NCBI GenBank assembly: GCA_022539475.1
Contig: VCMS01000062.1
Span: forward strand, 121,120-185,119
From: Gracilaria domingensis
Taxonomy: Eukaryota; Rhodophyta; Florideophyceae; Gracilariales; Gracilariaceae
Length of the DNA: 64,000 nucleotides
Reading direction: 5' to 3'
Shown here piece by piece: positions 7,072 through 61,362 of this stretch (position 1 is the first letter of the stretch; each line of letters starts with the position of its first letter). The notes below the pieces were generated by a model. It was given only the letters and a program-made list of their open reading frames with translations, ran no database searches and was not told the origin of the DNA. Position numbers and translations under genes: made by a program.

Positions 7072-7140
<69 letters not shown>

Positions 7141-8855: not shown

Positions 8856-8889
<34 letters not shown>

Positions 8890-9099: not shown

Positions 9100-9118
9100 A
9101 TACTACCTTCGGTAGTAT
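9100..9118. other. Short perfect hairpin after the GT29 stop codon
   Basis: Eight-base arms (ATACTACC and GGTAGTAT) flank a three-base loop, 10 bases beyond the stop of the minus-strand GT29 gene and 98 bases upstream of the lactate dehydrogenase ATG. It is one of the few AT-containing spots in this GC-rich island. It could mark a transcript end or be a protein-binding palindrome; nothing decides between these. Confidence 0.4.
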
Positions 9119-9127
9119 CTATGCTAG

Positions 9128-9629: not shown

Positions 9630-9708
<79 letters not shown>

Positions 9709-33272: not shown

Positions 33273-33284
33273 GAGTCTAGGTTT

Positions 33285-35691: not shown

Positions 35692-35763
35692 GCGCCGCGC
35701 GCCGCGCCGCCGCCGCGCTCGCACCTCGCGCCGCGCGCCGCGCCGCCGCCGCGCTCGCACCTC
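35692..35763. repeat. 36-base tandem repeat, two units
   Basis: Two identical 36-base GC-rich units starting at 35692 and 35728, followed by a partial third. They sit at the edge of the GC-rich island upstream of carbonic anhydrase. Confidence 0.8.
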
Positions 35764-35910
35764 GCGCCGCGCGCGCGCCTCGCGCCCGGCGCCTCGCGCG
35801 GCGCCACCGCGCGGCGAGCGGCCGCCCGCCGCACGCCGGAAGCATTCGCGCGCGAGTGCGAATGCCGCGGCAACGTCATGCGCGCGCGGCCAAGCGGCGC
35901 GGCGCGGCGC

Positions 35911-35988
35911 GGCGCGCCAGCGCGCGCGCCCGCCGCGCGTGGCATACGCGGCGCGCCAGCGCGCGCGCCCGCCGCGCGTGGCATACGT
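35911..35988. repeat. 39-base tandem repeat, two units
   Basis: Units start at 35911 and 35950 and share GCGCGCCAGCGCGCGCGCCC and a GTGGCATACG end. They lie in the promoter-distal part of the carbonic anhydrase upstream region. Confidence 0.8.
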
Positions 35989-36006
35989 GCGCGCCGCGCG
36001 CGCGCG

Positions 36007-36050
36007 CGCGCGGCGCCATCTCGCGCGCGCTCGCGAGATGGCGCCGCGCG
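36007..36050. repeat. Perfect 19-base inverted repeat with 6-base loop
   Basis: Arms at 36007-36025 and 36032-36050 are exact reverse complements and include the 10-base core GGCGCCATCT. It lies about 280 bases upstream of the TATA box of the carbonic anhydrase gene. Confidence 0.85.
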
Positions 36051-42536: not shown

Positions 42537-43829
42537 GCGTGGGGTCGACTGTACACCGATCGGCGTCCCATCGAGCCTTCGATACGATAAAAGTCACGGC
42601 ATTGGCACCGGGTCGATAGCTATTGCTGCGCCTTAGCAGCATTCACCGTTTTGAATCCCGAGATGCATCTTTGAAGAGAACCCTAAATGCTCTTCAGAGG
42701 TGCGTTGATGTCATGAATTTAGAATGACGGCCACTGTGAGCAAAATTCTGCTCAAAGCGTTGCTCCCTTCGCTTCTCAAGCAGCAAGAGCGAAATCATCA
42801 AAGGGAGAGCAAGTTGGCATTGGTATTGAACGGCTAGCATTTCCTACTGTACTATTGCACACGAGACAGAGGTGAGTTTGCGCAAAAGCTGGCAGTGGTA
42901 CTCGCAATTGTCATGGGCAACTAAAGAGCTGGAACCTGTGAGCTACCAATCAACATATAGAAACATGCTCGATTACTTCCTGTACTTTCTCTCAAGACCT
43001 TGCACAGTTTCGATGCGGAGCGTGATTGATTATGAGACGGTGGCATGTGCTTGCAGAGAGTCTCAATCACTTGTATATGTGAATGGCAATGGGTGGAACA
43101 CACACTAAAAAAAGAAACTTGCAACCCATGCATACAATTGACTCATCAAATCGTCTTGCGAAGAACGGCACGTGGAGAATGCTCGGCGGTTATCGCATAT
43201 GCTATTGATCTGTTCTCTCATTTCTCAAAAGTCTGAAAATGCAGGATATCATTAAGAGGCGGGGCTGAAAATTGTCCCAGTCCCGCCGTTTGAGATTAAA
43301 TCGGTTTCGAGCCGGAACAAGTACTGGGCAAGAGATCTCGCTAAGAAAATGTGCGCTCCCTTTTAGCCCTTCAGGGAGACTCGCGTTCTAACTTTGTTTT
43401 ATGCCCACGTTCTTGCGACGCAAAAATTGCGCTGAGCGAAATAGATCTTGCAGTGGGGGTCTGAGAAAGAACACCTCTAGCGCTGCAACACAGAAGGGAT
43501 TGCAAAGGGAGAGAGACGTACGGGAGTATGCGGCAAGCGGGCAAGACGTAGAGCTGAACCATTCCTACCTACGATATGAGAGCTGAAGAAGAGCAGCGCC
43601 GACGTCTGTGCGCGCGGCGGATACGAAATGGGCTGAGATATGACGCGCCCAATGGGCGACGTCCGCGGCGGCAGCGCGCCAATGACGGCGCGCGCGGTGT
43701 GCACGTGTGCGCACGGAGCATACAGCAGATCAGCAGCGCGCAGAAGCGCCGCTCCCGCGCCATGTGCGCGCGTACCGCCGCCCCCGGCGCGAGCTCCGAC
43801 CGCCGCGGCACCTGCCCACGCGCCGCACC
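42537..43829. other. Gene-free interval upstream of the SKI2-like gene
   Basis: No gene supported. The last 250 bases become GC-rich and contain the likely promoter of the SKI2-like protein. Confidence 0.45.
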
Positions 43830-46800
43830 ATGGCCGCGCCGCCGTCGCCGCTGCTCTTCCTCGCGCCCGCACCGCTCCCCCCCCGCCGCATCCTTGTTCG
43901 CCGCACGCGCTGCTTCCCGGCCGCATGTCAGCGCGACGCGCCGCGCGCCGGCCAGCGCTGGCACGCGCGCCAGTCCTCCGCGCTCAACCAGGACACGTCC
44001 GCCGACCGCTACATCGACCTGCATACCATGCAGGTCATCCGCGCCGCGAATGCTCATCTGTGCGACACGCCGCATCCGACCACTTCGTTTGGGCTGTTTG
44101 ATGTGTACACGCCGCTTTCGGACGCCGTGCACGGCGAGCACATTCGCGAACTGCTGTTCACGGCCGATACTGTGCCGCTGTCGGAGCCGCAGAAGGATGT
44201 GGTGCAGGCGTTGTTGTCAAGGCGCTCCGCGCTTTTCGTCGCGCCTGCGGCGCGTGACAAGCACCCGCTGCTCGTGGATGTGGTCATGAGAAGTCGCCTG
44301 TGGAAGGAGCTCATTGTGTACTGCGCGGACTCTCCTCGGGCAGCGGAGGCTGCTTATACGTTGCTTTGCGCACAGTTGCCAGCTGATCGCCGCCAGGAGG
44401 TCCAATTGCACCTTGACAGTTTGCCAGAGAACGGCGATCCAAACACCGACGCCGTTCGCGTCATCATTACCTCTCCGCTGCTCGTGCGTTCTGCGCTTGC
44501 CGATTGCGACGAAAGCAAGTGGTTGCAGAAAACGGCCATATTCTTTGTCGATGCGCTTACCCATTCAAATGCCACCCAGTGGGAGGAGATTCTTCTTGCG
44601 TTGCCAAGTCGCGTGCTGCTTTGCGTTTTCACCGCCGATTTGCCTTATGAGGATCACCAATTGCTTCCACTCTGGTTGGAGACAATTCAGAACTCCTTGA
44701 TTTCCGTCACTCCCTCAAGAGAAGCTTCATTTGCGCACCGCATTGAAAACCCTCAACATGCTCCTCTGCTTCGCACCTTTGCTTATAATGCTGCCACTCA
44801 TGACTCACCTGTGCAAGTATCCTTAACTTTACTCAAAGAGATGTTCGATAACAGGTCTCAATTATCCTTTGTGCCCAAGTACAGCGAATGTTTCCTGCAT
44901 GGCATCAAGATGATTCCGACGGAGAGCCCGTCATCGTTACTTTTTCGAAACGCGGATGAAGCCAGGTATGCGGACATAGCCGCGTTAGTTGTTTCTGACG
45001 CCAAGACCGTGCTCAAGAAGTCACGTAGAAAACGGGGGAGGCCTGGGAAGAGCAAGGAACGAACTGCCTCGTCTCGAGCAGCTGCGAAGAAGAGAAGAGA
45101 CAATGCATACGAATCGTCTTTGCTCTTTCCTGCTATTGCAATTGTCACTGGGCGTGACGCGACAGAGAACGCTGCACATGCTGTAGAGAGTGCTCTGGGA
45201 GATGAAGTTAGTCTTTTGTGGGATGATGACAGTCGTGAACACGTTGAGGATATTGTAGAAGCGGTTAGATCTGCGAATGCGGGTCGCTTGACAGATTCTG
45301 ATATTACTGGTTTAGACGTTTTGCTCTCCGGGGTTGGTGTTGTCCACGGAGGGTTGTCACCTGCTCTTCGAGTTCTGGTTGAAGAGTTGTTCAGGGCTGG
45401 CTTTGTTCCTCTGCTGTGTGCTGATTCTTTTCTTGGTTCTTCGGAGATCTCGGTCATGCCATGTGCCAAGAGTATTCTGATTGACGCATCTGCCATTGGA
45501 GTGTGCGATGACGCCACGAAGGGGCTTGTTGGGGCTGCTACCGTCGTGGCGTTGGCTGGTAGGGCTCAGAAAGATGATGTAGGCAATCTAGTATTTCTGT
45601 GGTACGACGAGTCTGTTGACGACGAAACAGCAGGATATGAGATTACATCAACACTGCTACACCGCTTGTTTTCGGGCGATGAAAATGAGCATCGTGACTA
45701 CTCTACCTCATCCCGAATGCCTCGTACGTCCGTTGCTAGTTTTGAGGAGTATCCCGGAGAAAAGCCGCATTGCGTCTTGTCGTCCTCGTACGGAGGTGTT
45801 TTGCGGAGCGTGCGAAGATTTGGCACGGACGGATACGAATCGATTTTTGAGTATACATTGAATTCATATAGGGGATGGTTGGAAAGAGCAGCAATCAGAG
45901 CGACTTTGGAACGACTTGGCGTGGAGAAAACGGCAATTTCATCACGGCTTGAATCCGAGGATTGGGGAACGATTGCGGAACATGAGCGACGAGAAGCAAA
46001 AGTGAACGAATTGAAACGGATGATGAGAGCGATGGAATCGCGCTACGCGGCGGTGCTGTCAAGGCGCGTGTTCAATGAGCTGCGAAGAAGTACACCTGGT
46101 AGGCTCATTGGAGTCGTTGTGCAAGCCGATGAGGAAGGTAATGGGTCGGCAGAACAGCGATTGTTACGGGGAGGGGAGGACAAAGTAGGAGAGGGTGAGA
46201 GTGTCGAACCCAGTGCAGATGTCAAAGGGGGTGAAGATATGCAAGGAAACAAGCTGGTTGCAAAGGAGAAAGAGGGGTCAAAGAAGGAGCGCATGGTATC
46301 AGCGGTTTTCGTAACGTTGCTTGATCAGGACTTGGACGGGAAACGAATCGGTGGGATGGAAAGTCGGCATCTAGTTGTCTGCATTCTGGCGGATGGATTG
46401 TGGACAATTGTACCACTCTCGGATGTAGCGGCTCTGGCTGGTGAGAACGAGGATTTGGTAGCAAACGTCGACCTGTTGATAATGCCCCATCCCGCGACGT
46501 TTGATCTGGAACCGCTGTCACAGCATGCGACATGCAGACCGATCGACGAGGGTGAACGGGAAGCAGTTTGCCGCATTTCTGACGATCTGATTGCGCGCGT
46601 GGCGTCAGATGACAGACCGGAACTGATTCCATGCAGCATTCCGGAATTCGAAAGTCAGAAGCAGCGAGTGGCAATTGCGGAGCGGCTGCATAGACAATCG
46701 GCATGGTATGGCAAGGATGAGGAAATCATCGAACTGAGGAAACTGAGGAGAAGAGAAGCAAAGCTGGGCGACGAGATTTCATGGCTTCAAAATCGAGAAA

Positions 46801-47783
46801 ACGAGCTGGAGGAGGAGTTGTTCAACAAGCATAACGACCATCGATGCAACCAAGAGGCGGTTATGGCGGTGATGGAGGACTGCCACGCTGTGACGGTGCA
46901 GGGCGATTTCAGCATGCAAATGACGCCGATTGGAGAGCTCGGGTCGGTGCTTCCATGCGAGTTCCCGCTGTTCGCCGGCGCATGTCTTTGTCTGATCGAC
47001 GATCTGGCATCACTGTCGCCTTCGCAGTTTGCGGCGCTGGTGGCGCTGGTGGTATGCGGCGAGGCGGTGTGGGAAGCGAATTCGGTGCGAGACGGATTTG
47101 ACCTGGGCGACAGCGACTACGGCGACGACGAACTTGACGACACGGCCGACAACGAAAGGCTGGATCTATCGATGCTGAAGCGTAAGGCTGACAACGACAA
47201 CGACTGGATGGAGAAGGAGCACAGGCGCGCGGGCACGATCAGCGGGAACGGGGTGGCGAAAGAACGGCTGCAGGTGTCAGTGCTGCCCGAACGAGTGACG
47301 TCGACGGTGGGCGAGATCTGGGAGGCGCTCAAGCTGCTGCACGAACGGCACGTGGACGAGAGCGAGGAGCGCGTGTGGCGCGTGTGCGAAATCGCGCCCA
47401 GCGCGCTGAACACGGCGGCGGCCGAGGCGGCGTTCTCGCTGGCGACGGACGACGGCGGCTGGCGCGACGCCGTGCGCGCGCTGGGCGGCGACGCGCAGGC
47501 GGCGGCGCTGGAGATGCGGCGCGTGTGCGCGGCGCTGCACGTGATTGCGAGGGGCGAGGCCGTGGAGCGCGGCGTGGGCGGCGTGGCGGCCGAGGCGGAG
47601 GCGGCGCTGAGGGCGGCGCTGCGCGCGGTGGGCGGCGGCGGCGGCGCGGCGCTGGCGCTGCGCGAGGGCGTGGCGGAGCGCGTCGTCGGCGGCGGCGCGT
47701 ACGAGCGCTGGTGGCGCGGCGCGCGCGACGCGCTGGCGGCCGTGGCGGTGGCGCGCGCGGCGGGCGGTGGCGACGGCGACGGT

Positions 47784-47837
<54 letters not shown>

Positions 47838-47897
47838 CGTGCGGGGGGAGGCGAAGCGCGGCGCGCTGTGGCGGCGGAGCTCATGGAGCCGTCGTGA
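43830..47897 (+). CDS. SKI2-like helicase-fold protein with degenerate ATPase motifs
   Basis: 1355 aa from the ATG at 43830 (ACCATGG). The first 45 residues (MAAPPSPLLFLAPAPLPPRR) resemble an organelle presequence. The fold is that of SKI2/MTR4/ISE2-type helicases, but motifs are worn. At the Walker A place stands LFVAPAARDKHPLLV instead of AxxGxGKT, at motif II FFVDALTHSN instead of DEVH, and at motif VI ALAGRAQKDD instead of QxxGRAGR. Around GVGVVHGGLSPALRVLVEEL and LLCADSFLGSSEISVM the alignment to the helicase is still evident. The C-terminal DSHCT-like domain is visible (GSVLPCEFPLFAGACLCLID, LASLSPSQFAALVALVVCGE). The frame is long and uninterrupted, which argues for a functional non-ATPase protein, perhaps an RNA-binding or scaffold relative of plastid ISE2. 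A (GD)n tract near the end comes from a hexanucleotide repeat. Confidence 0.75.
47768..47837 (+). repeat. GGCGAC hexanucleotide repeat
   Basis: About 11 or 12 units encode alternating Gly-Asp near the C-terminus of the SKI2-like protein. One unit carries a T. Likely length-variable. Confidence 0.93.
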
Positions 47898-48070
47898 CCC
47901 ACGACTGGAGAGCGTCTCGGCGGACTGCGGCGCTGTGACTGCGCGCTGCTGTCCACAGCTGCACTTGCTGCGCCGGCGGCAACTGGCGAGTCCGGCACAG
48001 TGTCGGTGTCGCTCGCCACACGCACAAGTTTGCGCACGCACGCGCGCGGCCGTCGAGCATCGACGCATGT

Positions 48071-48940
48071 GTGGCGGCGGCTCCAACCAGAATTCGCCAA
48101 GTACGCTCCGGTTCTAAACGAACGGATCACGCACGGATCACGCACGAATTCGAATATGATGGGGACTCGTTCAGGATACAAGTGACCGGCGACGGGAACA
48201 GGCATGAGCACTCTGAGGGGATATTCTATGACGCAGGGTACCAATGCGTCCGAATAATGTTTCCCAGGCTCCAGAATCTTCTTCATGAGCTTCTTCCACA
48301 TGTTCGAGGCCACGGAGTGCAAAACATTGAGATCGTGGCGCCCGATTTCGTTCTCAACTTTCAGAAGACGCGTAATCTGAAGCCAAACATTGAGAACATG
48401 TTTCCGGGCGTTCCTATCATTAAACCTCAAGAAATAACCGTTCTGAAACGATTAGCGCAACGCCAGCTCAAGGTCTCGGTTCGAGGACTGAAGAAGATCT
48501 GTCTGCAAAAAATGGTTTCGTTGCATGATGAAATCTCCTTTTCGAAATACGCATTAATGCTTATGACTATTGGATATCACCCACATGTCACTCAACTTTG
48601 CGACGTGGTCGAAGAGAAAACAGACCAAGTAGTCGGTATTTTGACCGTTTTCAATTCGGGTCGCACGCTAGACAAAGTAAAGAGCGCAACAGACCAACAG
48701 AAAGAAAGATGGATCACTCAAATCAAACGTGCTATACAGCATATTCATGCCAGGGGAGCGAGATGTGGCAGCATGAAGCCATCAGACGTTATGGTGGACG
48801 ACGACATGAATACATGCATAATTGATTTTGGGGAAAGATGTATGCCGAGTTGGCTTGACGAGGACACTTGCGAAGTTATGGAAGTGGATGATAACTGCTG
48901 CAAGAACGTGTTTGACTTTATCGATGGGCTTTCCAACTAG
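48071..48940 (+). CDS. Degenerate protein-kinase-like frame, 5' end unclear
   Basis: An open frame of about 289 codons with no in-frame ATG before the methionine of RIMFPRL (near codon 63), so either an upstream exon is missed or the 5' end is lost. The coordinates give the open frame. The N-terminal 120 residues are unassigned (RIQVTGDGNRHEHSEGIFYD). The C-terminal 150 residues follow the protein-kinase pattern: ICLQKMVSLHDEISFSKYAL (a Lys in the VAIK place), MTIGYHPHVTQLCDVVEEK, VVGILTVFNSGRTLDKV (hinge), then CGSMKPSDVMVDDDMNTCII where HRDxKxxN has become CGSMKPSD, and DFG in IIDFGERCMPS. Loss of the catalytic Asp suggests a pseudokinase or a decaying gene. It ends only about 775 bases before the inverted duplication. 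Confidence 0.45.
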   Translation: MAAAPTRIRQVRSGSKRTDHARITHEFEYDGDSFRIQVTGDGNRHEHSEGIFYDAGYQCVRIMFPRLQNLLHELLPHVRGHGVQNIEIVAPDFVLNFQKTRNLKPNIENMFPGVPIIKPQEITVLKRLAQRQLKVSVRGLKKICLQKMVSLHDEISFSKYALMLMTIGYHPHVTQLCDVVEEKTDQVVGILTVFNSGRTLDKVKSATDQQKERWITQIKRAIQHIHARGARCGSMKPSDVMVDDDMNTCIIDFGERCMPSWLDEDTCEVMEVDDNCCKNVFDFIDGLSN

Positions 48941-49714
48941 CATATCGATTTCGACGGTTGCTCCTTTCCTCGCTGAATTACAGATTTTGATGGCTGTTAA
49001 GCCTCATAACACTCTCAATGTTGGAAAATTCTGATACACACCAATATCGTATGAACGTCCATTGGTGTGGATCGATAAGAGAGTGGGAGATATGGGGAGA
49101 TTGGTATGGAGTTCGGTTTTGGATTGTTTCTATCGTGGGACGGATTGAGCACTCAACTGAGTGATGATGACATGACGATGGGTTTTTGTGGTCATAGTTT
49201 TCAGAAGGTCGCTGCTCACCGTCACGCAGTGAACGCGTCCTGTGACGCGGCGCGGCGCCTATGCGCCGTTCCAACTGCCACACACGACATGGACGCTGTT
49301 CTACGACACTGAAGACCCCGCCCAGGCCGTCAGCGCCCGCCTCCTGCCGGAGACAAGCTGCAACTCTAGGAAATAAACACTGTCTCTTGCTACCGTCTCT
49401 ACATTGCTTTAAATGTGCTCTAGACTCTTTCTTTTACGACCGGCTCGTAGGATTGTAACTTGCTGCGTGTAGTACAAGCGTACGTGCAATTAGGCCGTGA
49501 CATTTGAGCGACCTGCATTCCATGTCTATGACGACGATGAACGAGTTGACTGATCACCGGAAGCGTGTGAGTCCGAATGATTACCACGAACGTATCCCCG
49601 AAAATTGAGACGCAATAACAAATTCTGCCGCTCTTCGACCGAAACACTTCATCCTAGCTACGGAGAAAGGTATAAAAGCTGAACACCGAATATGAAAGAT
49701 TTGATTCTTCTTTT
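48941..49714. other. Interval with diverged homology to the far side of the duplication
   Basis: No gene supported. The part from about 49530 to 49714 is recognisably similar, in reverse complement, to about 59307-59480 (shared stretch GTGTTTCGGTCGAAGAG), but with many differences, unlike the almost identical arms next to it. Confidence 0.55.
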
Positions 49715-49762
49715 GTTTACATAGTTAGAAGCTTCAAGTGGTTATGATTTCGGTTCTACAAG

Positions 49763-52700
49763 TTAGTCTTTGTACATTCTAGATGAGCTGGATGAGTGTC
49801 GGCGTCTCTGCCACCAATTGCGTCTCCACCATCTACGCCTCAACCACCTCTTTCGTGTCACGTTCCGACGCTTTGGTGCTCGAGAAACCGATGGAGTGGG
49901 AGAGGGAGTAATCGAGGCAGAAGAAGAAGGAATCGTTGCAGCGGAAGAAGGGGATGGACTTGACGAAACTGAGGGTGTTGCACTGGATGAGGCTGAGACG
50001 GACGGCTTCGCAGACACCGAAGGGCTCGGAGTAAACGAGTTTGACGGTGACGGAGACGCCAGACGGCTGGGCAAGGCCGATGCAGAAGCTGTTGGAGATA
50101 CAGACGGGCTCGCAGAGACAGACGGTGACGGTGTTGCAGAAACCGAAGGGGTGGGTGATGCGGTGGGGGAAACTGTGGGGGATACGGAGGGAGATACGGA
50201 GGGAGATACAGTGGCTGACGGTGTCGGCGATGCTGATGCACTGGGCGTGACACTGATGGATGCAGACGGTGACGGCGAAGAACTGGGAGAGGCCGGAGGT
50301 GTCCCCTCAGCTCTATCGCCCTGCACAATTCCATGCGTATCCGAATCCACACCGTATATGAATTCCTCATCGTCGTATACCGCCTTTAGCGACCGCGGTG
50401 ACAGCTGTTCCATTGAAAACCGTTCCGGTTCTCCTACGTGTGGGTGGAACGCCATCCAAAACAGCTCCTCTTGCACATGATCGCTGCGAATGATCAATCT
50501 TGTGTGTTCCTTGTCACTGGAAAACTTCTCCACGCGGTATGAAACTGCCTGCCCCATTGTAGACACGTGCACGTCCACTTGAGCGATGCCGTCGTCGTTC
50601 ACTAGCACGATGCGACATCTGTTACCATTGCAGTTTGAAGATTGCGTCTCCACTTGCACACCATCCGCCAACATCAGATACGATTCAAACATATTACTGG
50701 TGGACCACTCAGACACGCGAGCCGAGTCCACAACCATAAAGAAGCCAGGCCCCGCTACACCTCTGTTCAGTATCACAGAACGCACCATCCAATCCAGTTT
50801 AGTTTCGCGATACTTCCTCTTCCACACCCACATGCCTCTGAACCCCACATCCGGGTCGCCATGCATGTTGAACTGCTCTCGTGTGAATCCCAGGTCAGCA
50901 CCGTCGTCGTCAGCAGGCCACCCAAAATCGTGTGGGTGTCCATACTCCGCTTCGTCGAAAAGCATGTTGTCCAGCCTCATCGAGCCGTCTTCATCGTACA
51001 CTGTCACCGCAGCCCTTGGCGCTGTGTTGAAAGGCCAGTTCCGCGCCCATTGAACGTTGTACGCGTACGTGAGATTTGCGGTGGCAACAACCTCCCTTCC
51101 GTTATCCTCTACGCGAACCATAGCCACAGAGGGTGCCCTGGCGTCTTGCGCGAGGCCGTCGATGTGCATCAGCGAATGCTTCCTGGAGTCGATGTTTCTC
51201 ACCCATACGAAATCATCAATCCATGCCGTCTTGAAGGCGGTGAGTGTGAACACGCCGCGATCCGCGTTGTCGTGGCCGACCAAGAACGCATCGGGGCGAG
51301 CATCAAAGTGCATGTATATGGCGTTCTCCGCTTCGCTGCTTCTGGCGATCAGCAGTCCTCGACGAGGGCTAAAGTACGAGAGTGGAAAGTGCTGAAGAAA
51401 CTCGCTCTCCAAACCTTGCGGCGACTCGGCATATGTGGAAGTGCCGTGCTCTAACCCCAGAACTGTGACGTGTGTGAGCACCTGTCCCCACTGGATTCGG
51501 CATGGATTGTTGTTCTTGAAGTCCTTTCCCATTCTCTGTTTCCACACCATTTGTGGCAGCGCGCCGTCGGGGTATGCGTACTTGAACAGAGCAGCCCATG
51601 CTGGGTACGAGATTCCTCCACCCGATGAGTGTCCTACAATGCGAGCGCACTGCCAAGGCTCCATCATCTGCGCCGCGTTGTGAATGAGAGCGCGAAATCG
51701 GTCCGTGTCCATAACGCGCAGGCCGCGGCGCTCAGCCGCCACCAGCGCTAGCGATCCCTCGCGAAGAGCGATGAAGTATGTGTAAGCGTCCTCGAAAGTC
51801 GCACCATCCGGGTAGATAGCGTGCTTCATATAAGCGCTGATGAGGGCGTTGAAGCGGTGGTGCAGCCCCGAATTGAAACCAGTAGTGCGGCCCGACAACA
51901 ACACGGCGCGCGCATATGCGTCGAAATTGGTCTCACCCTCAAGCACAAGGTTGGTGATGTACAGGTGGCCGTGGTACAATGCCCAGTTGCTGAAGATGCG
52001 GTGGGGGTGCTGTTCAGCGTTGGGAGAGCTTCGCGAGCTTTCGACTGCGGTCCCCCAAGACGTCTGCTTGTACATGAGCAGCGCTAATGCGCTGAGCACA
52101 ACGCGTCGCTCATCCACAGAGAACCGGTCGTGCAGCACATCCAAGGTGAGTGCCAGCGAAGACCCTGCCGAGTACCAATCATTGGATACCTGGAACCATC
52201 TTTTTTCATCCCACAAAAACGCTCGAGAGGCACCGTCTCCATTGGGACATTTGCCGGCACAATTGACAGCGCGGTGTGCCAGGAGCACCTTTGCCCATGC
52301 AACGGAGGCCTTGATGCAGTCATCAACGGTGGTGGTAGTGAATGACTCGCCAGTTCCGCGCTCTTCGACAACCTTCTCATTGACGCTGGCCCACACCGCA
52401 CATAGAAAGAAGCTTTGGCAGTGCCTCTCCGACATGTCCATGATGTGATTGGCGAGCGGCTTCAATTTATCAAGCGTTTCACTCGAAGCAGATGATAGGT
52501 CCTCCTCTCCAGTGTAAACCGCAGTTTGGCCATCTCGCTCCATATGAGCCAGCGTTTTCAGGACATTATTGGAAGTGACCAAGGACTGAGATGCTTTGCG
52601 GTTGAAGTAAGACCAAGATGTGGGGAGATCAAAAGTATCGGCGTTTGAATAACGTTGCAAAAGCTGATGCCACCCGTGTCGGTCAAAGAGCACTCGGGGG

Positions 52701-52912
52701 TGTACACCCGGTTCGTACGCGGCGGTCGGGGCAGGTGTCACAGCCGCGGTCCCAAATAAGGAAGGATCAGGTCCGGAGTTCATGAAAGTGGAGACCTTAT
52801 TGACGCTTGACGGGACACCATTAGGTCCGTTGGAATAGATTTGAGCCGAAAGCGCGATGGCAAAGATGGAAGTGAGAGTAGAAAGCAAGTGGAAAACACG
52901 AAGAGTGCACAT
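49763..52912 (-). CDS. Secreted heparinase-II/III-like protein with Ser/Pro linker and Arg/Trp tail, copy A
   Basis: 1049 aa from the ATG at 52912, which begins a signal peptide (MCTLRVFHLLSTLTSIFAIA, then LSAQ). The frame is open 73 codons further, but a TATA box at 53033-53040 lies downstream of that longer start and 121 bases above this one. The N-terminal body is an all-helical toroid-like domain as in heparinase II/III and alginate lyases (HPRVLFDRHGWHQLLQRY, IFSNWALYHGHLYITNLVLE, YPDGATFEDAYTYFIALREG), then a beta-sandwich-like part (SYFSPRRGLLIARSSEAENA, WPADDDGADLGFTREQFN). About 140 residues of Ser-Pro-x repeats form a stalk (about 870-1010). The last 39 residues are strongly basic with five Trp. 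A role on anionic extracellular polysaccharide, as lyase or binding protein, is plausible; the catalytic residues are not proven. Confidence 0.75.
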   Translation of the reverse strand: MCTLRVFHLLSTLTSIFAIALSAQIYSNGPNGVPSSVNKVSTFMNSGPDPSLFGTAAVTPAPTAAYEPGVHPRVLFDRHGWHQLLQRYSNADTFDLPTSWSYFNRKASQSLVTSNNVLKTLAHMERDGQTAVYTGEEDLSSASSETLDKLKPLANHIMDMSERHCQSFFLCAVWASVNEKVVEERGTGESFTTTTVDDCIKASVAWAKVLLAHRAVNCAGKCPNGDGASRAFLWDEKRWFQVSNDWYSAGSSLALTLDVLHDRFSVDERRVVLSALALLMYKQTSWGTAVESSRSSPNAEQHPHRIFSNWALYHGHLYITNLVLEGETNFDAYARAVLLSGRTTGFNSGLHHRFNALISAYMKHAIYPDGATFEDAYTYFIALREGSLALVAAERRGLRVMDTDRFRALIHNAAQMMEPWQCARIVGHSSGGGISYPAWAALFKYAYPDGALPQMVWKQRMGKDFKNNNPCRIQWGQVLTHVTVLGLEHGTSTYAESPQGLESEFLQHFPLSYFSPRRGLLIARSSEAENAIYMHFDARPDAFLVGHDNADRGVFTLTAFKTAWIDDFVWVRNIDSRKHSLMHIDGLAQDARAPSVAMVRVEDNGREVVATANLTYAYNVQWARNWPFNTAPRAAVTVYDEDGSMRLDNMLFDEAEYGHPHDFGWPADDDGADLGFTREQFNMHGDPDVGFRGMWVWKRKYRETKLDWMVRSVILNRGVAGPGFFMVVDSARVSEWSTSNMFESYLMLADGVQVETQSSNCNGNRCRIVLVNDDGIAQVDVHVSTMGQAVSYRVEKFSSDKEHTRLIIRSDHVQEELFWMAFHPHVGEPERFSMEQLSPRSLKAVYDDEEFIYGVDSDTHGIVQGDRAEGTPPASPSSSPSPSASISVTPSASASPTPSATVSPSVSPSVSPTVSPTASPTPSVSATPSPSVSASPSVSPTASASALPSRLASPSPSNSFTPSPSVSAKPSVSASSSATPSVSSSPSPSSAATIPSSSASITPSPTPSVSRAPKRRNVTRKRWLRRRWWRRNWWQRRRHSSSSSRMYKD

Positions 52913-53032
52913 TGCTCCAAGGAGTAAGTTGTTAAAGGTAATTGGATTAGTATAAAAGGCGGTGAAAGGCTGTAAGTTATGCTGTGAGATGTTGAAAGAT
53001 TGTTTGAGTTTGATCGAGAGGAATCGGTGAGA

Positions 53033-53040
53033 GTTATATA
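53033..53040 (-). promoter_or_regulatory. TATA box, copy A
   Basis: TATATAAC on the minus strand, 121 bases upstream of the ATG at 52912; the same box is present at the same distance in copy B. Confidence 0.6.
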
Positions 53041-53819
53041 CCGCAACATTGCGCTGAAGTTTGTAAGAATCCTGCTTGGAGCCATTGTTGTGCAGAAAGG
53101 CCGGTTTGGGTTTCTTTCCCTTTAGAGACACATGTTAAATACGGTGACAAGCATTGCTGGTAGAGTCGGTAAAGGGCAGCAAATGAGGTTACGAATGGCG
53201 CATTTGCATCACGACAAAAATGAGTGCAGACCATTTATGGGATGAATCGGAAGCCATGTTGAATTAGGCCGGCAGCGGTCAAAGTAACGTTCTCTCACTA
53301 GAAAGGCCATTGCCTTCTCATGGCAATTTCTGATAATCTCTCCAGCAGCTAGACCCTGACGCTCGCGCAGCGCTGGAAAACGCAATCGTAGAGTTTTACT
53401 GGAATTTCGAGGTACGAAGAAGATTTATCGGAACGGCATTGCGTGGGAGGCAGATCTTTACAGCGTCGCCGTCGACTGCACTTGTGGCTCAATTATTCGC
53501 GTTCACTACAGACTATACTCCGCCGTCGTCTTGACACCGGCCGTTGCCGTACTCGTGTCTTGGCCGGCTGTTGACGTGCTCGAGTCTTGGCCGGCGGCTG
53601 CCGGCCTCGTTTCTTCGCCAGTTTAGCAACAAGAAATTGCCGCCCAAAGAAAGGAAGAAGAAGAGCAAGATAAAGATAAAAATAAAGAAGAAGAAGCAGA
53701 GTAAACTTCTCGGCATATTTTTCTTCGGTCACCTCAACATCTTTTGCGATATAATGAATTGTGTATTGGTGAAAGGCAAATGTAAACCTTTTAGCGGCCG
53801 CCCTGATATATTCTAGCAT

Positions 53820-54570
53820 TGAAACAGTGTTGCCTCGACACTTTGTTGAATTGTATGCAATGCAACCAAGTGTCGAGACAACAGCTCAAAGAGAGCGATT
53901 GCGCTTGTTTAGTACAAGCAATGAAAGATGTAGTTATGGTACACATGTCAGGAAGGAATCAGATCATGCAGTGCTGAGATGCCCTCTGACTAACTCCTCT
54001 CGCCAAGAAACGCGACCCCCATAAATTCAGGTGTGAACAGTTATAACTGTTCACACCTGGGTGCAACGGATCGAGAAGATCCACTGCAGTGCCGTCCGAA
54101 TGAGGACGACGGTTGGCTCTGACAACCAGTGACCAGTCACCACGAGCACACTGTGCTATGGCTAGAGAGGATCTCGCAGTGGCGGTTTCGGTGTGAAGCT
54201 GCTTGCGATGTCAAGGGCGGCCCAGAGGGAGGGCTGGTTGAGGGAGATGTCTATAAGCATCCGTAGTTGTAGTTTGTATGATAGAGATGAGATCCTTTAC
54301 TTATCGCAAGATCGCGTAGTGCGCTTGAGTTGAAGAACTTCGAACGCCGAGTCCAATGGTGACAGCAAACTGTCAGGGCACGGCGCATAAAGACAAACTA
54401 AGTCTAAAGTACCGTGACAACATGTCGCACATATCTACAAAAATATGAGTCTCCAAGAACTGCTTAGACAACACTCGCATAGATTGTCGGCCTTCCTGAC
54501 GAAATAGAACTTCCTTTAACGAACGTTCTGCTTCGACCTAGGAAATAGAGGTTGTTGTCGGAAGTAAAGA
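53820..54570 (+). mobile_element. Diverged LINE 3' end, interrupted
   Basis: Two blocks match the LINE at 32793-33272. Block one (about 53830-54020) encodes RCSYGTHVRKESDHAVLRCP. Block two (about 54447-54570) matches the 3' part, including CTTAGACAACACTCGCATAG and the AAGAAGAAAGAAGAA tail. The 430 bases between them have no match in the other copy and begin with the 32-base palindrome. It belongs to a different, older copy or subfamily; a few sites break the frame. No target duplication was found. Confidence 0.6.
54028..54059. repeat. Perfect 32-base palindrome
   Basis: Each half is 16 bases and begins CAGGTGTGAACAGTTA, its exact reverse complement follows with no spacer. It lies at the left end of the non-LINE block inside the old LINE copy, so it may mark the end of a small inserted element. 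Confidence 0.9.
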
Positions 54571-55961
54571 AGAAAGAAGAAATACAAGCGATGTGACTGC
54601 GCGCGTATATGACTCATGCTGATGAGCGAGTATTGTTGACCATACCCTGGTTAAGTTTTCAGCAACAACATTGTCGTTGAAATCCGCATATGAGCGAATC
54701 ACGCTCTTTTCAACACATAAACAATTCAGTTTACGTTCATTTTTGGCTCGAATGATATAAACACTAGAACTGCCTCTATTCTCGTTGCGCTTGTTGACCA
54801 ACGATGCTTACTCCGTAGCTCCATCTTCCCATTTCTCTCTTTGCTTAAAACCGTTACACTCCCTGGGTGAATTTTTGCCGTTGTACCCTCCTCGTAAAAG
54901 CGTAGCCGCGCCCATTAACAAGAGCACGTTCCGCCAATCTTGCAATATTGTCTCATGGAAAAATGTTTTTCACGGCAATCATGCAGGCAGGCACATCAAA
55001 TCCCCCACGAGCCATATGTGATCTAATCACATATCTAGAGGTGTATATGCTCAATTGAAAGAACTCATTTTAGCTCGCAGGTTGTATTCAAAACACATTA
55101 GAAGTGTAACACAGCACTCGCCATTAAAATGTCTGGCCTTGTTAAGGAGAGAGGGCTACATGGAATAATGCTTCCGTAGTATCTCAAAATCAGAGACACT
55201 ATCCCACACTAAAGAAAGAAAGCATCTGCCGAACACAACTCTGGATATATCTTACAGACGAGAAAACAAGCCATATAACACTTCAAAACCGTTCATGATA
55301 CTCTTTCAGAACGTTTCTAGCAAACATCTTTCTCGTTTGTGCGTATAAACAAGCTATGACTCCATGCGACTTCCATTTGGCTAGTAGTACGATATTCTGG
55401 TCAAGCATTCTTTTTACATACGAAGGAAAAACTGTCTCGCTAAACTACTTGTGAAGGAACGAGGGACGTTGAAAAATGAGGGACATTTAAGAACGAATGC
55501 ATGAGGATGTAGAAATCAAAAAAAGAAATCGTCTTCACAAGAGCATGCATTAGATACTTCATGCACTTTTCTGACTCAATGCGGAAGATCTGGACATGAT
55601 AACAAAGTACTTTTGCTACAGATACTGATACAGTATCTATTGGACACCTCTTATTCTTGATTATGCGCATAGAACAATAAGTACTTATGTTTTTCGAAAG
55701 ACCTAAACCTGCTACTAATGGCTTTTGATATAGAGAAATTCAACATGGCTTCCGATTCATCCCATAAATGGTCTGCACTCATTTTTGTCGTGATGCAAAT
55801 GCGCCATTCGTAATCTCATTTGCTGCCCTTTACCGACTCTACCAGCAATGCTTGTCACCGTATTTAACATGTGTCTCTAAAGGGAAAGAAACCCAAACCG
55901 GCCTTTCTGCACAACAATGGCTCCAAGCAGGATTCTTACAAACTTCAGCGCAATGTTGCGG

Positions 55962-55969
55962 TATATAAC
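55962..55969 (+). promoter_or_regulatory. TATA box, copy B
   Basis: TATATAAC, 121 bases upstream of the ATG at 56090; same spacing as copy A. Confidence 0.6.
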
Positions 55970-56089
55970 TCTCACCGATTCCTCTCGATCAAACTCAAAC
56001 AATCTTTCAACATCTCACAGCATAACTTACAGCCTTTCACCGCCTTTTATACTAATCCAATTACCTTTAACAACTTACTCCTTGGAGCA

Positions 56090-59000
56090 ATGTGCACTCT
56101 TCGTGTTTTCCACTTGCTTTCTACTCTCACTTCCATCTTTGCCATCGCGCTTTCGGCTCAAATCTATTCCAACGGACCTAATGGTGTCCCGTCAAGCGTC
56201 AATAAGGTCTCCACTTTCATGAACTCCGGACCTGATCCTTCCTTATTTGGGACCGCGGCTGTGACACCTGCCCCGACCGCCGCGTACGAACCGGGTGTAC
56301 ACCCCCGAGTGCTCTTTGACCGACACGGGTGGCATCAGCTTTTGCAACGTTATTCAAACGCCGATACTTTTGATCTCCCCACATCTTGGTCTTACTTCAA
56401 CCGCAAAGCATCTCAGTCCTTGGTCACTTCCAATAATGTCCTGAAAACGCTGGCTCATATGGAGCGAGATGGCCAAACTGCGGTTTACACTGGAGAGGAG
56501 GACCTATCATCTGCTTCGAGTGAAACGCTTGATAAATTGAAGCCGCTCGCCAATCACATCATGGACATGTCGGAGAGGCACTGCCAAAGCTTCTTTCTAT
56601 GTGCGGTGTGGGCCAGCGTCAATGAGAAGGTTGTCGAAGAGCGCGGAACTGGCGAGTCATTCACTACCACCACCGTTGAGGACTGCATCAAGGCCTCCGT
56701 TGCATGGGCAAAGGTGCTCCTGGCACACCGCGCTGTCAATTGTGCCGGCAAATGTCCCAATGGAGACGGTGCCTCTCGAGCGTTTTTGTGGGATGAAAAA
56801 AGATGGTTCCAGGTATCCAATGATTGGTACTCGGCAGGGTCTTCGCTGGCACTCACCTTGGATGTGCTGCACGACCGGTTCTCTGTGGATGAGCGACGCG
56901 TTGTGCTCAGCGCATTAGCGCTGCTCATGTACAAGCAGACGTCTTGGGGGACCGCAGTCGAAAGCTCGCGAAGCTCTCCCAACGCTGAACAGCACCCCCA
57001 CCGCATCTTCAGCAACTGGGCATTGTACCACGGCCACCTGTACATCACCAACCTTGTGCTTGAGGGTGAGACCAATTTCGACGCATATGCGCGCGCCGTG
57101 TTGTTGTCGGGCCGCACTACTGGTTTCAATTCGGGGCTGCACCACCGCTTCAACGCCCTCATCAGCGCTTATATGAAGCACGCTATCTACCCGGACGGTG
57201 CGACTTTCGAGGACGCTTACACATACTTCATCGCTCTTCGCGAGGGATCGCTAGCGCTGGTGGCGGCTGAGCGCCGCGGACTGCGCGTTATGGACACGGA
57301 CCGATTCCGCGCTCTCATTCACAACGCGGCGCAGATGATGGAGCCTTGGCAGTGCGCTCGCATTGTAGGACACTCATCGGGTGGAGGAATCTCGTACCCA
57401 GCATGGGCTGCTCTGTTCAAGTACGCATACCCCGACGGCGCGCTGCCACAAATGGTGTGGAAACAGAGAATGGGAAAGGACTTCAAGAACAACAATCCAT
57501 GCCGAATCCAGTGGGGACAGGTGCTCACACACGTCACAGTTCTGAGGTTAGAGCACGGCACTTCCACATATGCCGAGTCGCCGCAAGGTTTGGAGAGCGA
57601 GTTTCTTCAGCACTTTCCACTCTCGTACTTTAGCCCTCGTCGAGGACTGCTGATCGCCAGAAGCAGCGAAGCGGAGAACGCCATATACATGCACTTTGAT
57701 GCTCGCCCCGATGCGTTCTTGGTCGGCCACGACAACGCGGATCGCGGCGTGTTCACACTCACCGCCTTCAAGACGGCATGGATTGATGATTTCGTATGGG
57801 TGAGAAACATTGACTCCAGGAAGCATTCGCTGATGCACATCGACGGCCTCGCGCAAGACGCCAGGGCACCCTCTGTGGCTATGGTTCGCGTAGAGGATAA
57901 CGGACGGGAGGTTGTTGCCACCGCAAATCTCACGTACGCGTACAACGTTCAATGGGCGCGGAACTGGCCTTTCAACACAGCGCCAAGGGCTGCGGTGACA
58001 GTGTACGATGAAGACGGCTCGATGAGGCTGGACAACATGCTTTTCGACGAAGCGGAGTATGGACACCCACACGATTTTGGGTGGCCTGCTGACGACGACG
58101 GTGCTGACCTGGGATTCACACGAGAGCAGTTCAACATGCATGGCGACCCGGATGTGGGGTTCAGAGGCATGTGGGTGTGGAAGAGGAAGTATCGCGAAAC
58201 TAAACTGGATTGGATGGTGCGTTCTGTGATACTGAACAGAGGTGTAGCGGGGCCTGGCTTCTTTATGGTTGTGGACTCGGCTCGCGTGTCTGAGTGGTCC
58301 ACCAGTAATATGTTTGAATCGTATCTGATGTTGGCGGATGGTGTGCAAGTGGAGACGCAATCTTCGAACTGCAATGGTAACAGATGTCGCATCGTGCTGG
58401 TGAACGACGACGGCATTGCTCAAGTGGACGTGCACGTGTCAACAATGGGGCAGGCAGTTTCATACCGCGTGGAGAAGTTTTCCAGTGACAAGGAACACAC
58501 AAGATTGATCATTCGCAGCGATCACGTGCAAGAGGAGCTGTTTTGGATCGCGTTCCACCCACACGTGGGAGAACCGGAACGGTTTTCAATGGAACAGCTG
58601 TCACCGCGGTCGTTAAAGGCGGTATACGACGATGAGGAATTCATATACGGTGTGGATTCGGATACGCATGGAATTGTGCAAGGCGATAGAGCTGAGGGGA
58701 CACCTCCGGCCTCTCCCAGTTCTTCGCCGTCACCGTCTGCATCCATCAGTGTCACGCCCAGTGCATCAGCATCGCCGACACCGTCAGCCACTGTATCTCC
58801 CTCCGTATCTCCCTCCGTATCCCCCACAGTTTCTCCCACCGCATCACCCACCCCTTCGGTTTCTGCAATACCGTCACCGTCTGTCTCTGCGAGCCCGTCT
58901 GTATCTCCAACAGCTTCTGCATCGGCCTTGCCCAGCCGTCTGGCGTTTCCGTCACCGTCAAACTCGTTTACTCCGAGCGCTTCGGTGTCTGCGAAGCCGT

Positions 59001-59257
59001 CCGTCTCAGCCTCATCCAGTGCAACACCCTCAGTTTCGTCAAGTCCATCCCCTTCTTCCGCTGCAACGATTCCTTCTTCTTCTGCCTCGATTACTCCCTC
59101 TCCCACTCCATCGGTTTCTCGAGCACCAAAGCGTCGGAACGTGGCACGAAAGAGGTGGTTGAGGCGTAGATGGTGGAGACGCAATTGGTGGCAAAGACGC
59201 CGACGCTCGCAGAGACGCCGACGCTCATCCAGCTCATCTAGAATGTACAAAGACTAA
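56090..59257 (+). CDS. Secreted heparinase-II/III-like protein with Ser/Pro linker and Arg/Trp tail, copy B
   Basis: 1055 aa, the twin of copy A, with the same signal peptide, helical and beta-rich parts, Ser/Pro stalk and Arg/Trp tail. Differences found by comparing the two products: D to E and G to R in the body, M to I before HPHVGEPERF, T to I, S to F and P to A in the stalk, T to A before the tail, H to R near the end, and a six-residue insertion (a repeated RRRRSQ unit) that accounts for the 18 extra bases. Synonymous changes also occur (TCT/TCA near HVSTMG; CTA/TTA before the AVYDDEEF stretch). Both copies have complete frames and the same TATA box, so both are probably expressed. The pattern suggests a recent duplication or a recent gene conversion. 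Confidence 0.75.
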   Translation: MCTLRVFHLLSTLTSIFAIALSAQIYSNGPNGVPSSVNKVSTFMNSGPDPSLFGTAAVTPAPTAAYEPGVHPRVLFDRHGWHQLLQRYSNADTFDLPTSWSYFNRKASQSLVTSNNVLKTLAHMERDGQTAVYTGEEDLSSASSETLDKLKPLANHIMDMSERHCQSFFLCAVWASVNEKVVEERGTGESFTTTTVEDCIKASVAWAKVLLAHRAVNCAGKCPNGDGASRAFLWDEKRWFQVSNDWYSAGSSLALTLDVLHDRFSVDERRVVLSALALLMYKQTSWGTAVESSRSSPNAEQHPHRIFSNWALYHGHLYITNLVLEGETNFDAYARAVLLSGRTTGFNSGLHHRFNALISAYMKHAIYPDGATFEDAYTYFIALREGSLALVAAERRGLRVMDTDRFRALIHNAAQMMEPWQCARIVGHSSGGGISYPAWAALFKYAYPDGALPQMVWKQRMGKDFKNNNPCRIQWGQVLTHVTVLRLEHGTSTYAESPQGLESEFLQHFPLSYFSPRRGLLIARSSEAENAIYMHFDARPDAFLVGHDNADRGVFTLTAFKTAWIDDFVWVRNIDSRKHSLMHIDGLAQDARAPSVAMVRVEDNGREVVATANLTYAYNVQWARNWPFNTAPRAAVTVYDEDGSMRLDNMLFDEAEYGHPHDFGWPADDDGADLGFTREQFNMHGDPDVGFRGMWVWKRKYRETKLDWMVRSVILNRGVAGPGFFMVVDSARVSEWSTSNMFESYLMLADGVQVETQSSNCNGNRCRIVLVNDDGIAQVDVHVSTMGQAVSYRVEKFSSDKEHTRLIIRSDHVQEELFWIAFHPHVGEPERFSMEQLSPRSLKAVYDDEEFIYGVDSDTHGIVQGDRAEGTPPASPSSSPSPSASISVTPSASASPTPSATVSPSVSPSVSPTVSPTASPTPSVSAIPSPSVSASPSVSPTASASALPSRLAFPSPSNSFTPSASVSAKPSVSASSSATPSVSSSPSPSSAATIPSSSASITPSPTPSVSRAPKRRNVARKRWLRRRWWRRNWWQRRRRSQRRRRSSSSSRMYKD

Positions 59258-59520
59258 CTTGTAGAACCGAAATCATAACCACTTGAAGCTTCTAACTATG
59301 TAAACAGAAGAAGAATCACATTCTTTCACATTTGGTGTTCAGCGTTTTCCCTTTCTCTGGATTTGGTTGACGTGTTTCGGTCGAAGAGTTGCAAAATCTG
59401 TTGTTGCTACTCAATTTTGGGAGCAGCGTTTGTGGGAATCATTCGTACTTGAACTTGTCCGGGCGTGTCGGACACCACATATAGTGCTTTTCAGCGCATT
59501 TAGAGCTGTGTTGTTCCTCG

Positions 59521-60048
59521 TCACAGCTGCCGTGAAATATACGACGCAACATGGGTAAAGAGGACTCTAAGGATTGCGTCGGTGCATCGGATGTGTACAA
59601 CCAAAAGCACTATACCGACGGTAGTTGTAGAGAGCGTGCACACCCTTATCACCATGTTTTTTCGCCTTAAGATCGTGTGATTGTAATGGTTGAAGATGTT
59701 ATTCAAAGAATAGTGCCGTACACCCGCAGTATAAAGGCTCAAACCATTGAAGTTGTATCCCCAGACTACAAACGGATGCGGACTCTGGAACCAGAGCCAA
59801 AACGCAGTGTTGGGAACATCTTTCCGAGTGCGGTTGTGTTCAAAAAATGGTTTCTCCTCGGGAAGAGCTTGAGAGCGTGCGGCAAAGCTTCTCATCAGCG
59901 CCGAAAGTCGTATAGCAGCAATCTCATCGGCAAAAACGTTGAGTGAAACTGAGATGGGCTCAACGATAATTATGAAAGACAGACGAAGAGCTGCTGACAA
60001 AAATGCTAAAATCGGATAAAAAAATAGGATGCATGGGCGGCCAATCAT
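59521..60048 (-). CDS. Small membrane protein frame, unknown
   Basis: 175 aa from the ATG at 60048; the frame runs further upstream to 60213 without another ATG. Two hydrophobic segments are visible: ILFFYPILAFLSAALRLSFI near the N-terminus and STTTVGIVLLVVHI near the C-terminus. The soluble part has many aromatics (NTAFWLWFQSPHPFVVWGYN, FNGLSLYTAGVRHYSLNNIF). No known family. Its helix-plus-soluble layout and EPIS text loosely recall the membrane protein at 33659-34864 (EPLS), so it may be a distant or truncated relative. It may also be a decayed gene fragment left by the adjacent rearrangement. Confidence 0.4.
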   Translation of the reverse strand: MIGRPCILFFYPILAFLSAALRLSFIIIVEPISVSLNVFADEIAAIRLSALMRSFAARSQALPEEKPFFEHNRTRKDVPNTAFWLWFQSPHPFVVWGYNFNGLSLYTAGVRHYSLNNIFNHYNHTILRRKNMVIRVCTLSTTTVGIVLLVVHIRCTDAILRVLFTHVASYISRQL

Positions 60049-60240
60049 GGAGATGTGGCTTCCAGCCTGGACGCGCAAATGTGGGGCATTGCTGCATGCA
60101 CCCAAAGCGCTGACGTCATCGCGCAAATGGCGGAGAACGAGATTGGCAGAGCAGCTCAAGCGATTGGTGTAAAGTCTATACAGTAAGCGGGGTGGGCAAA
60201 AACGCAGAAGCACAAAAAAAATCGGCGCGGCGCGCGGCGC

Positions 60241-61362
60241 TCATTGGCGCACAGCCTTGCGGTAACTGTACAAGCGCCGCCCATCGGCGCCAACGGCGTG
60301 CGCCTCAAAGGAGTGGCCGTCGAAGCGCAGCGTGAAGAAGCCGTGCGCCGCACGGCCCCACAGCGTGTGGCCCTCGCGCGGTATCCGCGCGCCGTCGCGC
60401 CGCAGCGGCAGCACGTCGCAGCAGCTCGCCCAGCGCTGCTCCTCGCCGCGCGGCGGCGGCTCGATGCGGTGCAGCTTGCTGCCGGCGCCGCTCACGATGT
60501 GGTCCACCGCGGCGCCGCCGGCCGCGCGCGGCTGCAGGTGCATCAGCGAGTGCTCGTGCCCCGAGATGTACGCCAGCATGCGCGCGACGTACGGGCGCAG
60601 CAGCGGCTCCAGCGCGTCGCGCAGCTCGGGCGTGCCCAGGTGGTCGGCGATGGACATGGTGTACATGTTGTGGTGCCCCACCAGCACAAAGTGCGAGCGC
60701 GCCGGCAGCGCGCGCAGCGTGGCCTCCAGCCAGCGCAGCTGCGCGTCCGGCGACTGCCGGTTCACCTGGCGCGCGATGCGGCCGTAGTGCGCGCCGACGA
60801 ACGGCGTGGTGTCCAGGAAGATGGCCGTGAGCGACGGCGACAGCCGCCGGCTGTAGTACGGCGACGGCATGTTCCAGCGCGCCGACAGCTGCGAGTAGCG
60901 CATCTGCGCGTCGATGGAGCCCAGGTGGTCGTGGTTGCCCAGCGAGACGAACCACGGCACGGCGTGCAGCAGCGGCTGGTGGTACACGTGCTCGAACGAC
61001 GTGTTGAACTGCCGGTCGTCCACGGAGCCGACGCCGTGCTTGTAGAAGTTGTCGCCGGTGGAGAGCACCACCACCGCCGCCGAGCGCTCGCGCTCGAGCT
61101 GCACGGCGCGCGCCAGCGCGTCGGCCACCGCCGTCTGCCCGTGCTGCGCCTCGCGCCCCCAGTCGCCCAGCACCAGCATGCTCACAGCCTCCTCGCCGCG
61201 GACGCCCTCGCCCCCACGCGCGCCGGCGGACAGCGCGACGGCCGCCAGCAGCAGCGCGGCGGCGGCGGCGGCGGCGACGGCGCCCGCCACGCGCGCCTCG
61301 CGGCGGCGCGTCGCGGGCGCAGAAAGCAGCAGCGGAGCGCGCTCGTCCCTGCCAGCGTCCAT
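60241..61362 (-). CDS. Type-5 (tartrate-resistant-like) acid phosphatase, membrane-anchored or secreted
   Basis: 373 aa from the ATG at 61362; a TATA-like CATATAAG on the minus strand about 80 bases upstream (61437-61444) supports this start. An Arg-rich N-terminus precedes one hydrophobic helix (VAGAVAAAAAAALLLAAVAL), a signal anchor or signal peptide. Metallophosphoesterase motifs in order: MLVLGDWG, LSTGDNFY, VSLGNHDH, FVLVGHHNMYT and YISGHEHSL. These are the dimetal ligands of purple acid phosphatases; the spacing and length fit the small type-5 group. Phosphate scavenging at the cell surface or in the vacuole is plausible. Very GC-rich; divergent from the GATA gene. Confidence 0.92.
   Translation of the reverse strand: MDAGRDERAPLLLSAPATRRREARVAGAVAAAAAAALLLAAVALSAGARGGEGVRGEEAVSMLVLGDWGREAQHGQTAVADALARAVQLERERSAAVVVLSTGDNFYKHGVGSVDDRQFNTSFEHVYHQPLLHAVPWFVSLGNHDHLGSIDAQMRYSQLSARWNMPSPYYSRRLSPSLTAIFLDTTPFVGAHYGRIARQVNRQSPDAQLRWLEATLRALPARSHFVLVGHHNMYTMSIADHLGTPELRDALEPLLRPYVARMLAYISGHEHSLMHLQPRAAGGAAVDHIVSGAGSKLHRIEPPPRGEEQRWASCCDVLPLRRDGARIPREGHTLWGRAAHGFFTLRFDGHSFEAHAVGADGRRLYSYRKAVRQ

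What the first reader, a model, noticed from the sequence alone, without database searches (positions are those of the whole stretch)
49715..59306. Recent 3.55-kb inverted gene duplication (large imperfect palindrome)
Two arms (49715-53265 and 55737-59306) are almost identical reverse complements around a 2.47-kb spacer. The inner edges are sharp, whereas similarity continues outside the outer edges at a clearly lower level (49530-49714 versus 59307-59480). That step suggests an older inverted duplication whose gene-bearing part was homogenised by gene conversion, or a second rearrangement event. Both copies keep full frames and TATA boxes.
Basis: seen in the sequence. Interest (0 to 1): 0.75.

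Follow-up and report, generated by a model that had tools for sequence, protein, structure and literature searches.

The report
Inverted gene pair homogenised by conversion
A red-seaweed genome carries two back-to-back, nearly identical copies of an enzyme-like gene whose surroundings are far more diverged than the genes, the usual sign that one copy has overwritten the other; dispersed copies elsewhere in the genome show the same sign.

Summary
Arms 49715-53265 and 55737-59306 are inverted copies with 23 substitutions and one 18-nt indel over 3,551 aligned bases; the outer flanks are homologous but differ at 33 of 142 sites, then homology stops.

Each arm holds a divergently transcribed gene for a 1,049/1,055-aa protein with an alginate-lyase/heparinase/dermatan-epimerase-like fold. 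Body dS between the arms is 0.022.

Two comparisons within the family decide it. Copies C258 and C292 differ about equally at silent sites (dS 0.026) and in flanks (2.7-3.5%), so flanks are not simply fast-evolving. Copies C292 and C14, on different contigs, share 1,724 identical bases although adjoining flanks differ by 17%; the odd one out switches from C14 in the flanks to C258 in the body.

Best reading: an older inverted duplication whose gene part was homogenised by gene conversion, as proposed for Caenorhabditis inverted gene pairs; here it also reached dispersed copies. A new member of a known kind.

The parts
49715..53265 (-). left arm of the inverted repeat
   Evidence: 23 substitutions and an 18-nt indel against the right arm
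55737..59306 (+). right arm of the inverted repeat
49763..52912 (-). left gene, 1,049 aa: hydrophobic, signal-peptide-like start, enzyme-like body, Ser/Pro-rich and Arg/Trp-rich tail
   Evidence: identical to database protein P0001
56090..59257 (+). right gene, 1,055 aa, same product with a 6-residue insertion in the basic tail
   Evidence: body (first 870 residues) predicted at mean pLDDT 92
53266..55736 (.). spacer between the two divergent genes; its full length occurs once in the genome search, but it contains several dispersed repeats
49570..49714 (-). left outer flank, diverged homologue of the right outer flank
59307..59449 (+). right outer flank, diverged homologue of the left outer flank
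56090..57195 (+). inner part of the right gene with no silent difference from the left gene (one replacement, D197E, at 56680)
   Evidence: 0 of 14 silent differences fall in the first 290 of 832 silent sites, P = 0.003, statistic chosen after seeing the data

Best explanation
An ancestral gene and some flanking DNA were duplicated in inverted, divergent orientation. The two copies then drifted apart, as the outer flanks (about 23% different) still show. Later, gene conversion between the arms overwrote about 3.5 kb that includes the gene and some 350 bases upstream, so that the arms are now 99.35% identical at aligned bases. Shown: the step in identity, the low silent divergence, fewer replacement than silent changes in the body, and the same step between dispersed relatives with a switch of the odd copy out. 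Inferred: that the process is gene conversion rather than replacement by another rearrangement, and that it happened more than once (the inner third of the silent sites lacks differences). The gene product is inferred to be a secreted carbohydrate-active enzyme; its substrate is unknown.
For: Step from 23/3,551 to 33/142 substitutions with homology on both sides of the step. Body dS 0.0216, dN 0.0016 between the arms. Control: C258-C292 has body dS 0.0256 and flank differences of 29/1,061 upstream, 24/775 downstream and 36/1,020 further upstream, so silent sites and flanks run at similar rates. Second case: C292-C14 has body dS 0.0164 but 43/248 (with 104 gap columns) and 42/243 (14 gap columns) differences in the adjoining 5' and 3' flanks; 1,724 identical bases; odd-one-out counts are C14 66, C258 3, C292 0 upstream of the ATG, then C258 10, C14 0, C292 0 in L003 2181-3780, then C14 45, C258 1, C292 2 downstream of the stop. 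Silent differences between the arms are absent from the inner 290 of 832 silent sites.
Against: No related species' DNA could be compared, so the age of the inverted arrangement is unknown. The step at the arms is seen only on the outer (3') side; the inner side has no diverged homologous flank. The longest-run tests give only P = 0.035-0.038, and the stronger P = 0.003 is post hoc. In the C14 case the edges are gradual: between L003 1525-2181 and 3780-4719 all three copies appear as odd one out (C14 34, C292 16, C258 13 together), and the 10 C258-only sites in the middle could be C258's own mutations; it is the absence of C14-only sites that calls for conversion. No GC bias of derived changes is seen: of 17 polarised differences of 22, 10 are GC to AT and 5 AT to GC. 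Assembly error is not excluded by reads.
Confidence: 0.85

Rival explanations
1. A recent wholesale replacement: one arm was copied once into the place of an older diverged copy by break-induced or template-switch repair, with no recurrent conversion.
For: A single tract of about 3.5 kb explains the step; the arm difference is low throughout.
Against: Silent differences are unevenly spread, though the tests are modest, and a second case exists in the family. Mechanistically it is close to one long conversion tract.
Confidence: 0.1
2. A recent simple inverted duplication; the flank similarity is unrelated, or the flanks simply evolve very fast while the gene is under selection.
For: Arms are nearly identical and inner edges are sharp.
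Against: Flank homology is significant. Silent sites, not only protein, are conserved. In C258-C292 flanks and silent sites have diverged alike.
Confidence: 0.02
3. Assembly artefact: an inverted chimera or two alleles joined.
For: No reads could be examined; the assembly has 680 contigs.
Against: Read-level foldbacks should give identical arms and identical outer flanks (established knowledge, no call). Here the arms differ by 23 substitutions and an in-frame indel, the outer flanks differ by 23%, and the DNA beyond them is unlike on the two sides.
Confidence: 0.03

Closest known systems
Inverted paralogous gene pairs of Caenorhabditis (Zhao et al. 2007, PMC1803023; abstract, part 1 of 2 of the Results and the Discussion read)
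   Same: Divergent paralogues in a long inverted repeat with very high arm identity. In C. [quoted passage not shown] Gene conversion is one mechanism the authors propose.
   Different: There the arrangement is shared by related species, so it predates them; here no relative could be compared. The spacer here is 2.47 kb against 126 bp in their F44E5 example. Here a dispersed set of the same family shows the same sign. The authors favour selection for the inverted structure; nothing here tests that.
Mammalian sex-chromosome palindromes with arm-to-arm gene conversion (PMC3723533, PMC8981503; search listing and start of abstract only)
   Same: Near-identical inverted arms, attributed to gene conversion.
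   Different: On sex chromosomes, with larger arms (recalled) and GC-biased conversion; no GC bias is seen here and the chromosome context is unknown.
Ectopic gene conversion between paralogues in Caenorhabditis and Drosophila (PMC3966223, PMC3924832; search listing and start of abstract only)
   Same: Homogenisation of duplicated genes within one genome.
   Different: Papers not opened, so a detailed comparison was not made.
Alpha/alpha-toroid plus beta-sandwich lyases and epimerases: Atu3025, Alg17c, heparinase II, human dermatan sulfate epimerase 1
   Different: Sequence identity 11-14%; no Pfam match in the window proteins; substrate unknown.

Membership tests
Inverted gene pair homogenised by gene conversion | Two inverted arms carrying paralogous genes | tested here: met
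Inverted gene pair homogenised by gene conversion | Arm identity far above that of adjoining DNA from the same duplication | tested here: met
   23/3,551 vs 33/142 substitutions; outer side only
Inverted gene pair homogenised by gene conversion | Low silent divergence, not only protein conservation | tested here: met
   body dS 0.0216; flank/silent control C258-C292
Inverted gene pair homogenised by gene conversion | Arrangement older than the homogenisation, seen in related species | not testable with these tools
   no DNA of related red algae was fetched; only proteins, most of unnamed source
Inverted gene pair homogenised by gene conversion | Arm-to-arm exchange seen in individuals | not testable with these tools
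   needs reads or population data
Alpha/alpha-toroid polysaccharide lyase / epimerase fold | Overall fold | tested here: met
Alpha/alpha-toroid polysaccharide lyase / epimerase fold | Catalytic Asn/His, Tyr, His arrangement | tested here: inconclusive
   of 69 rows in A1, H547 is kept in 69, N309 in 67, Y377 in 67, H428 in 68, H314 in 59; position 310 is W in 67 of 69 but H in both planctomycete relatives. Equivalence to catalytic residues is by motif and recall; no superposition was made
Pfam Hepar_II_III_C (PF07940) | Profile match above the curated cut-off | tested here: not met
   no match for either window protein at E <= 0.1; 1 of 8 relatives scanned gave 15.8 bits against a cut-off of 24
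Red algal galactose-2,6-sulfurylase | Sequence relation to the characterised Chondrus enzymes | not tested
   no Chondrus sequence was compared; PMC7359372 passages mention 263 positions in a sulfurylase II alignment

The most novel reading that the evidence does not exclude
This family of probably secreted, lyase/epimerase-fold proteins undergoes concerted evolution across the Gracilaria genome: conversion tracts keep overwriting the catalytic body between inverted and dispersed copies alike. In the C14 case the promoter side, the N-terminus and the 3' flank were left free to diverge, so that one enzyme can sit behind different regulatory DNA; in the inverted pair about 350 bases of upstream DNA were homogenised too.
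Probability: 0.35. Interest if true: 0.55.

Novelty: new member of a known kind. Interest (0 to 1): 0.36.

Why it matters
Gene conversion between paralogues makes old duplicates look young and misleads dating of gene families. Here a seaweed gene family offers two cases plus an internal control for the background rate in the same genome, so the claim rests on more than the step alone. The window proteins match no Pfam family yet carry a fold used on acidic polysaccharides and are probably secreted, so they are candidates for cell-wall enzymes in an agar-producing group.

Tried and rejected
Considered and rejected: fast-evolving flanks or selection on the protein alone (C258-C292 control); a segmental duplication including neighbours (window 48000-49714 and 59258-60300 have no second copy apart from the flank itself and, on the left, a dispersed repeat at about 49175-49414; simple repeats are skipped by that search, and DNA further out was not searched); a read-level foldback (arm and flank differences); GC-biased conversion (not seen). 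Galactose-2,6-sulfurylase as the product came up from recall and was not tested.

Led nowhere: phmmer of the window protein against solved structures matched mainly in the low-complexity tail; profile searches had an oligoalginate lyase at E = 0.57 as best match. A planctomycete relative matched no solved structure at E <= 0.1, and the two planctomycete proteins and two distant hits had no Pfam match above a cut-off.

Literature: none of the papers listed (20 of 309 shown; 10 of 10; 2 of 2; 6 of 6) deals, by title and start of abstract, with gene conversion of nuclear paralogues in Gracilaria; of these only PMC1803023 was opened. The G. domingensis genome paper is not among the 10 of 12 papers shown; it is known here from a citation.

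Not done: the base rate of such inverted pairs in this genome. In 248 kb of this genome, window included, one other inverted pair over 1 kb turned up (C89:179073-180898 / 192556-194329, 82%), but those stretches were chosen for the gene family, so this is no base rate.

Changes on checking: the C258-C292 flank control was recounted over longer flanks (it had been given for 300 and 250 bases only), and H314 is now given as 59 of 69 rather than only as invariant in the 12-row alignment.

Full report
Where the window lies. The window is C62:121120-185119 of a 77.9-Mb genome in 680 contigs. Contig C62 is 328,347 bases long, the length given for database protein P0001, which equals the left gene product; contigs C292 and C154 have the lengths given for proteins named FGB62_292g06 and FGB62_154g116 of Gracilaria domingensis. 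PMC10388701 (passages seen) gives 78 Mb for that species. I therefore take the genome to be G. domingensis, by inference.

The observation. The inverted repeat is real and close to the stated coordinates. In the arms there are 23 substitutions (14 silent, 8 replacement, 1 upstream) and one in-frame 18-nt indel. The inner edges are abrupt. Beyond the outer edges, 145 columns have 109 matches and 33 substitutions, after which similarity falls to background. In genome-wide DNA searches the right flank (window 59258-60300) has only itself and the left flank as matches (2 of 2); of 37 matches to window 48000-49714, one is itself, one the right flank, and 35 are a dispersed repeat at about 49175-49414.

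The genes. They are divergent, with their 5' ends facing the spacer. With the body ending at window 58690, body differences are 13 silent to 3 replacement and tail differences 1 to 5 (Fisher P = 0.011); with a slightly different boundary they are 12 to 3 and 2 to 5. I read this as purifying selection on the body and little on the low-complexity tail. Silent differences are missing from the inner 290 of 832 silent sites (P = 0.003, statistic chosen after inspection); longest-run tests give P = 0.035 to 0.038.

Relatives in the same genome. A protein search gives eight strong places: the two arms, C258, C292 and C14 (68-69% identical), C154 (57%) and two on C89 (47% and 39%), plus weaker pieces on C76 and a tail-only match on C128 (11 matches; 41 of 48 candidates scored). 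Silent sites between the arms and the C258/C292/C14 group are at or near saturation. In a tree of 25 rows the arms pair together, C258, C292 and C14 form their sister group, and the unnamed P0002 falls outside both (95/95 support); within the trio C292 and C14 pair on the protein body (91/88). Long branches elsewhere (P0047, P0060, P0020) make other joins unsure.

The control. C258 and C292 share C258:66824-73186, about 6.4 kb including a 207-base insertion in C258. Their body dS is 0.0256. Their flanks differ at 29 of 1,061 sites upstream, 24 of 775 downstream and 36 of 1,020 further upstream (2.7%, 3.1%, 3.5%); in the nearest 300 and 243 bases it is 3 and 4 sites. So flank and silent rates are similar in this family, and a tenfold gap as at the arms is not the rule.

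The second case. C14 differs from C292 at 43 of 248 sites (104 gap columns) and 42 of 243 sites (14 gap columns) in the adjoining 5' and 3' flanks, but has body dS 0.0164. Counting which of the three is the odd one out: upstream of the ATG C14 66, C258 3, C292 0; L003 1525-2181 C14 17, C258 2, C292 4; 2181-3780 C258 10, C14 0, C292 0; 3780-4719 C14 17, C292 12, C258 11; downstream of the stop C14 45, C258 1, C292 2. C292 and C14 are identical for 1,724 bases. The relation of the three copies thus changes between flank and body, with gradual edges, which is the usual mark of gene conversion. C14 is on another contig, so an inverted arrangement is not needed. This raises the odds that the step at the arms has the same cause.

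Comparison with known cases. Zhao et al. 2007 (PMC1803023; abstract, part 1 of 2 of the Results, and the Discussion read) describe divergent and convergent inverted gene pairs in Caenorhabditis whose arms are kept alike within species; they propose gene conversion as one mechanism and argue for selection on the structure. The present case fits that kind. What it adds is a dispersed parallel case and an internal rate control in a red alga. What it lacks is a between-species comparison.

Limits. Conversion is inferred from pattern, not observed.

Noticed in passing
L003 257-463 (C258:67876-68082); window about 33066-33278, and 53922-54013 with 54440-54583: A short dispersed element with a GAA-rich end is present in C258 but absent from the duplicate C292, bounded by an 11-base direct repeat, so it seems to have moved after the C258-C292 duplication; it may be the 3' end of a non-LTR retroelement. 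In the spacer a related copy is interrupted by about 430 bases of another dispersed repeat.
   Followed up: partly
window 54028-54059: A perfect 32-base palindrome with no loop, in the left part of the element that interrupts the spacer repeat.
   Followed up: no
G000 C89:179073-180898 and 192556-194329: Another inverted pair, 1.8 kb at 82% identity about 11.7 kb apart, on the contig of the two C89 members of the same family.
   Followed up: no
G000 C292:44100-44317 and 45403-45847 against 52005-52701: Two stretches resembling the upstream region of the C292 gene lie about 7 and 8 kb further upstream at 70-75% identity, perhaps the remains of an older copy.
   Followed up: no
L035, L036: Both planctomycete relatives have Asn-His where 67 of 69 family rows have Trp after the conserved Asn, a possible change in chemistry.
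   Followed up: no
window about 6960-9740, 35692-36030, 47413-47863: GC-rich, repetitive stretches that resemble each other in both orientations; the last lies near the end of a long predicted frame (43707-47897).
   Followed up: no
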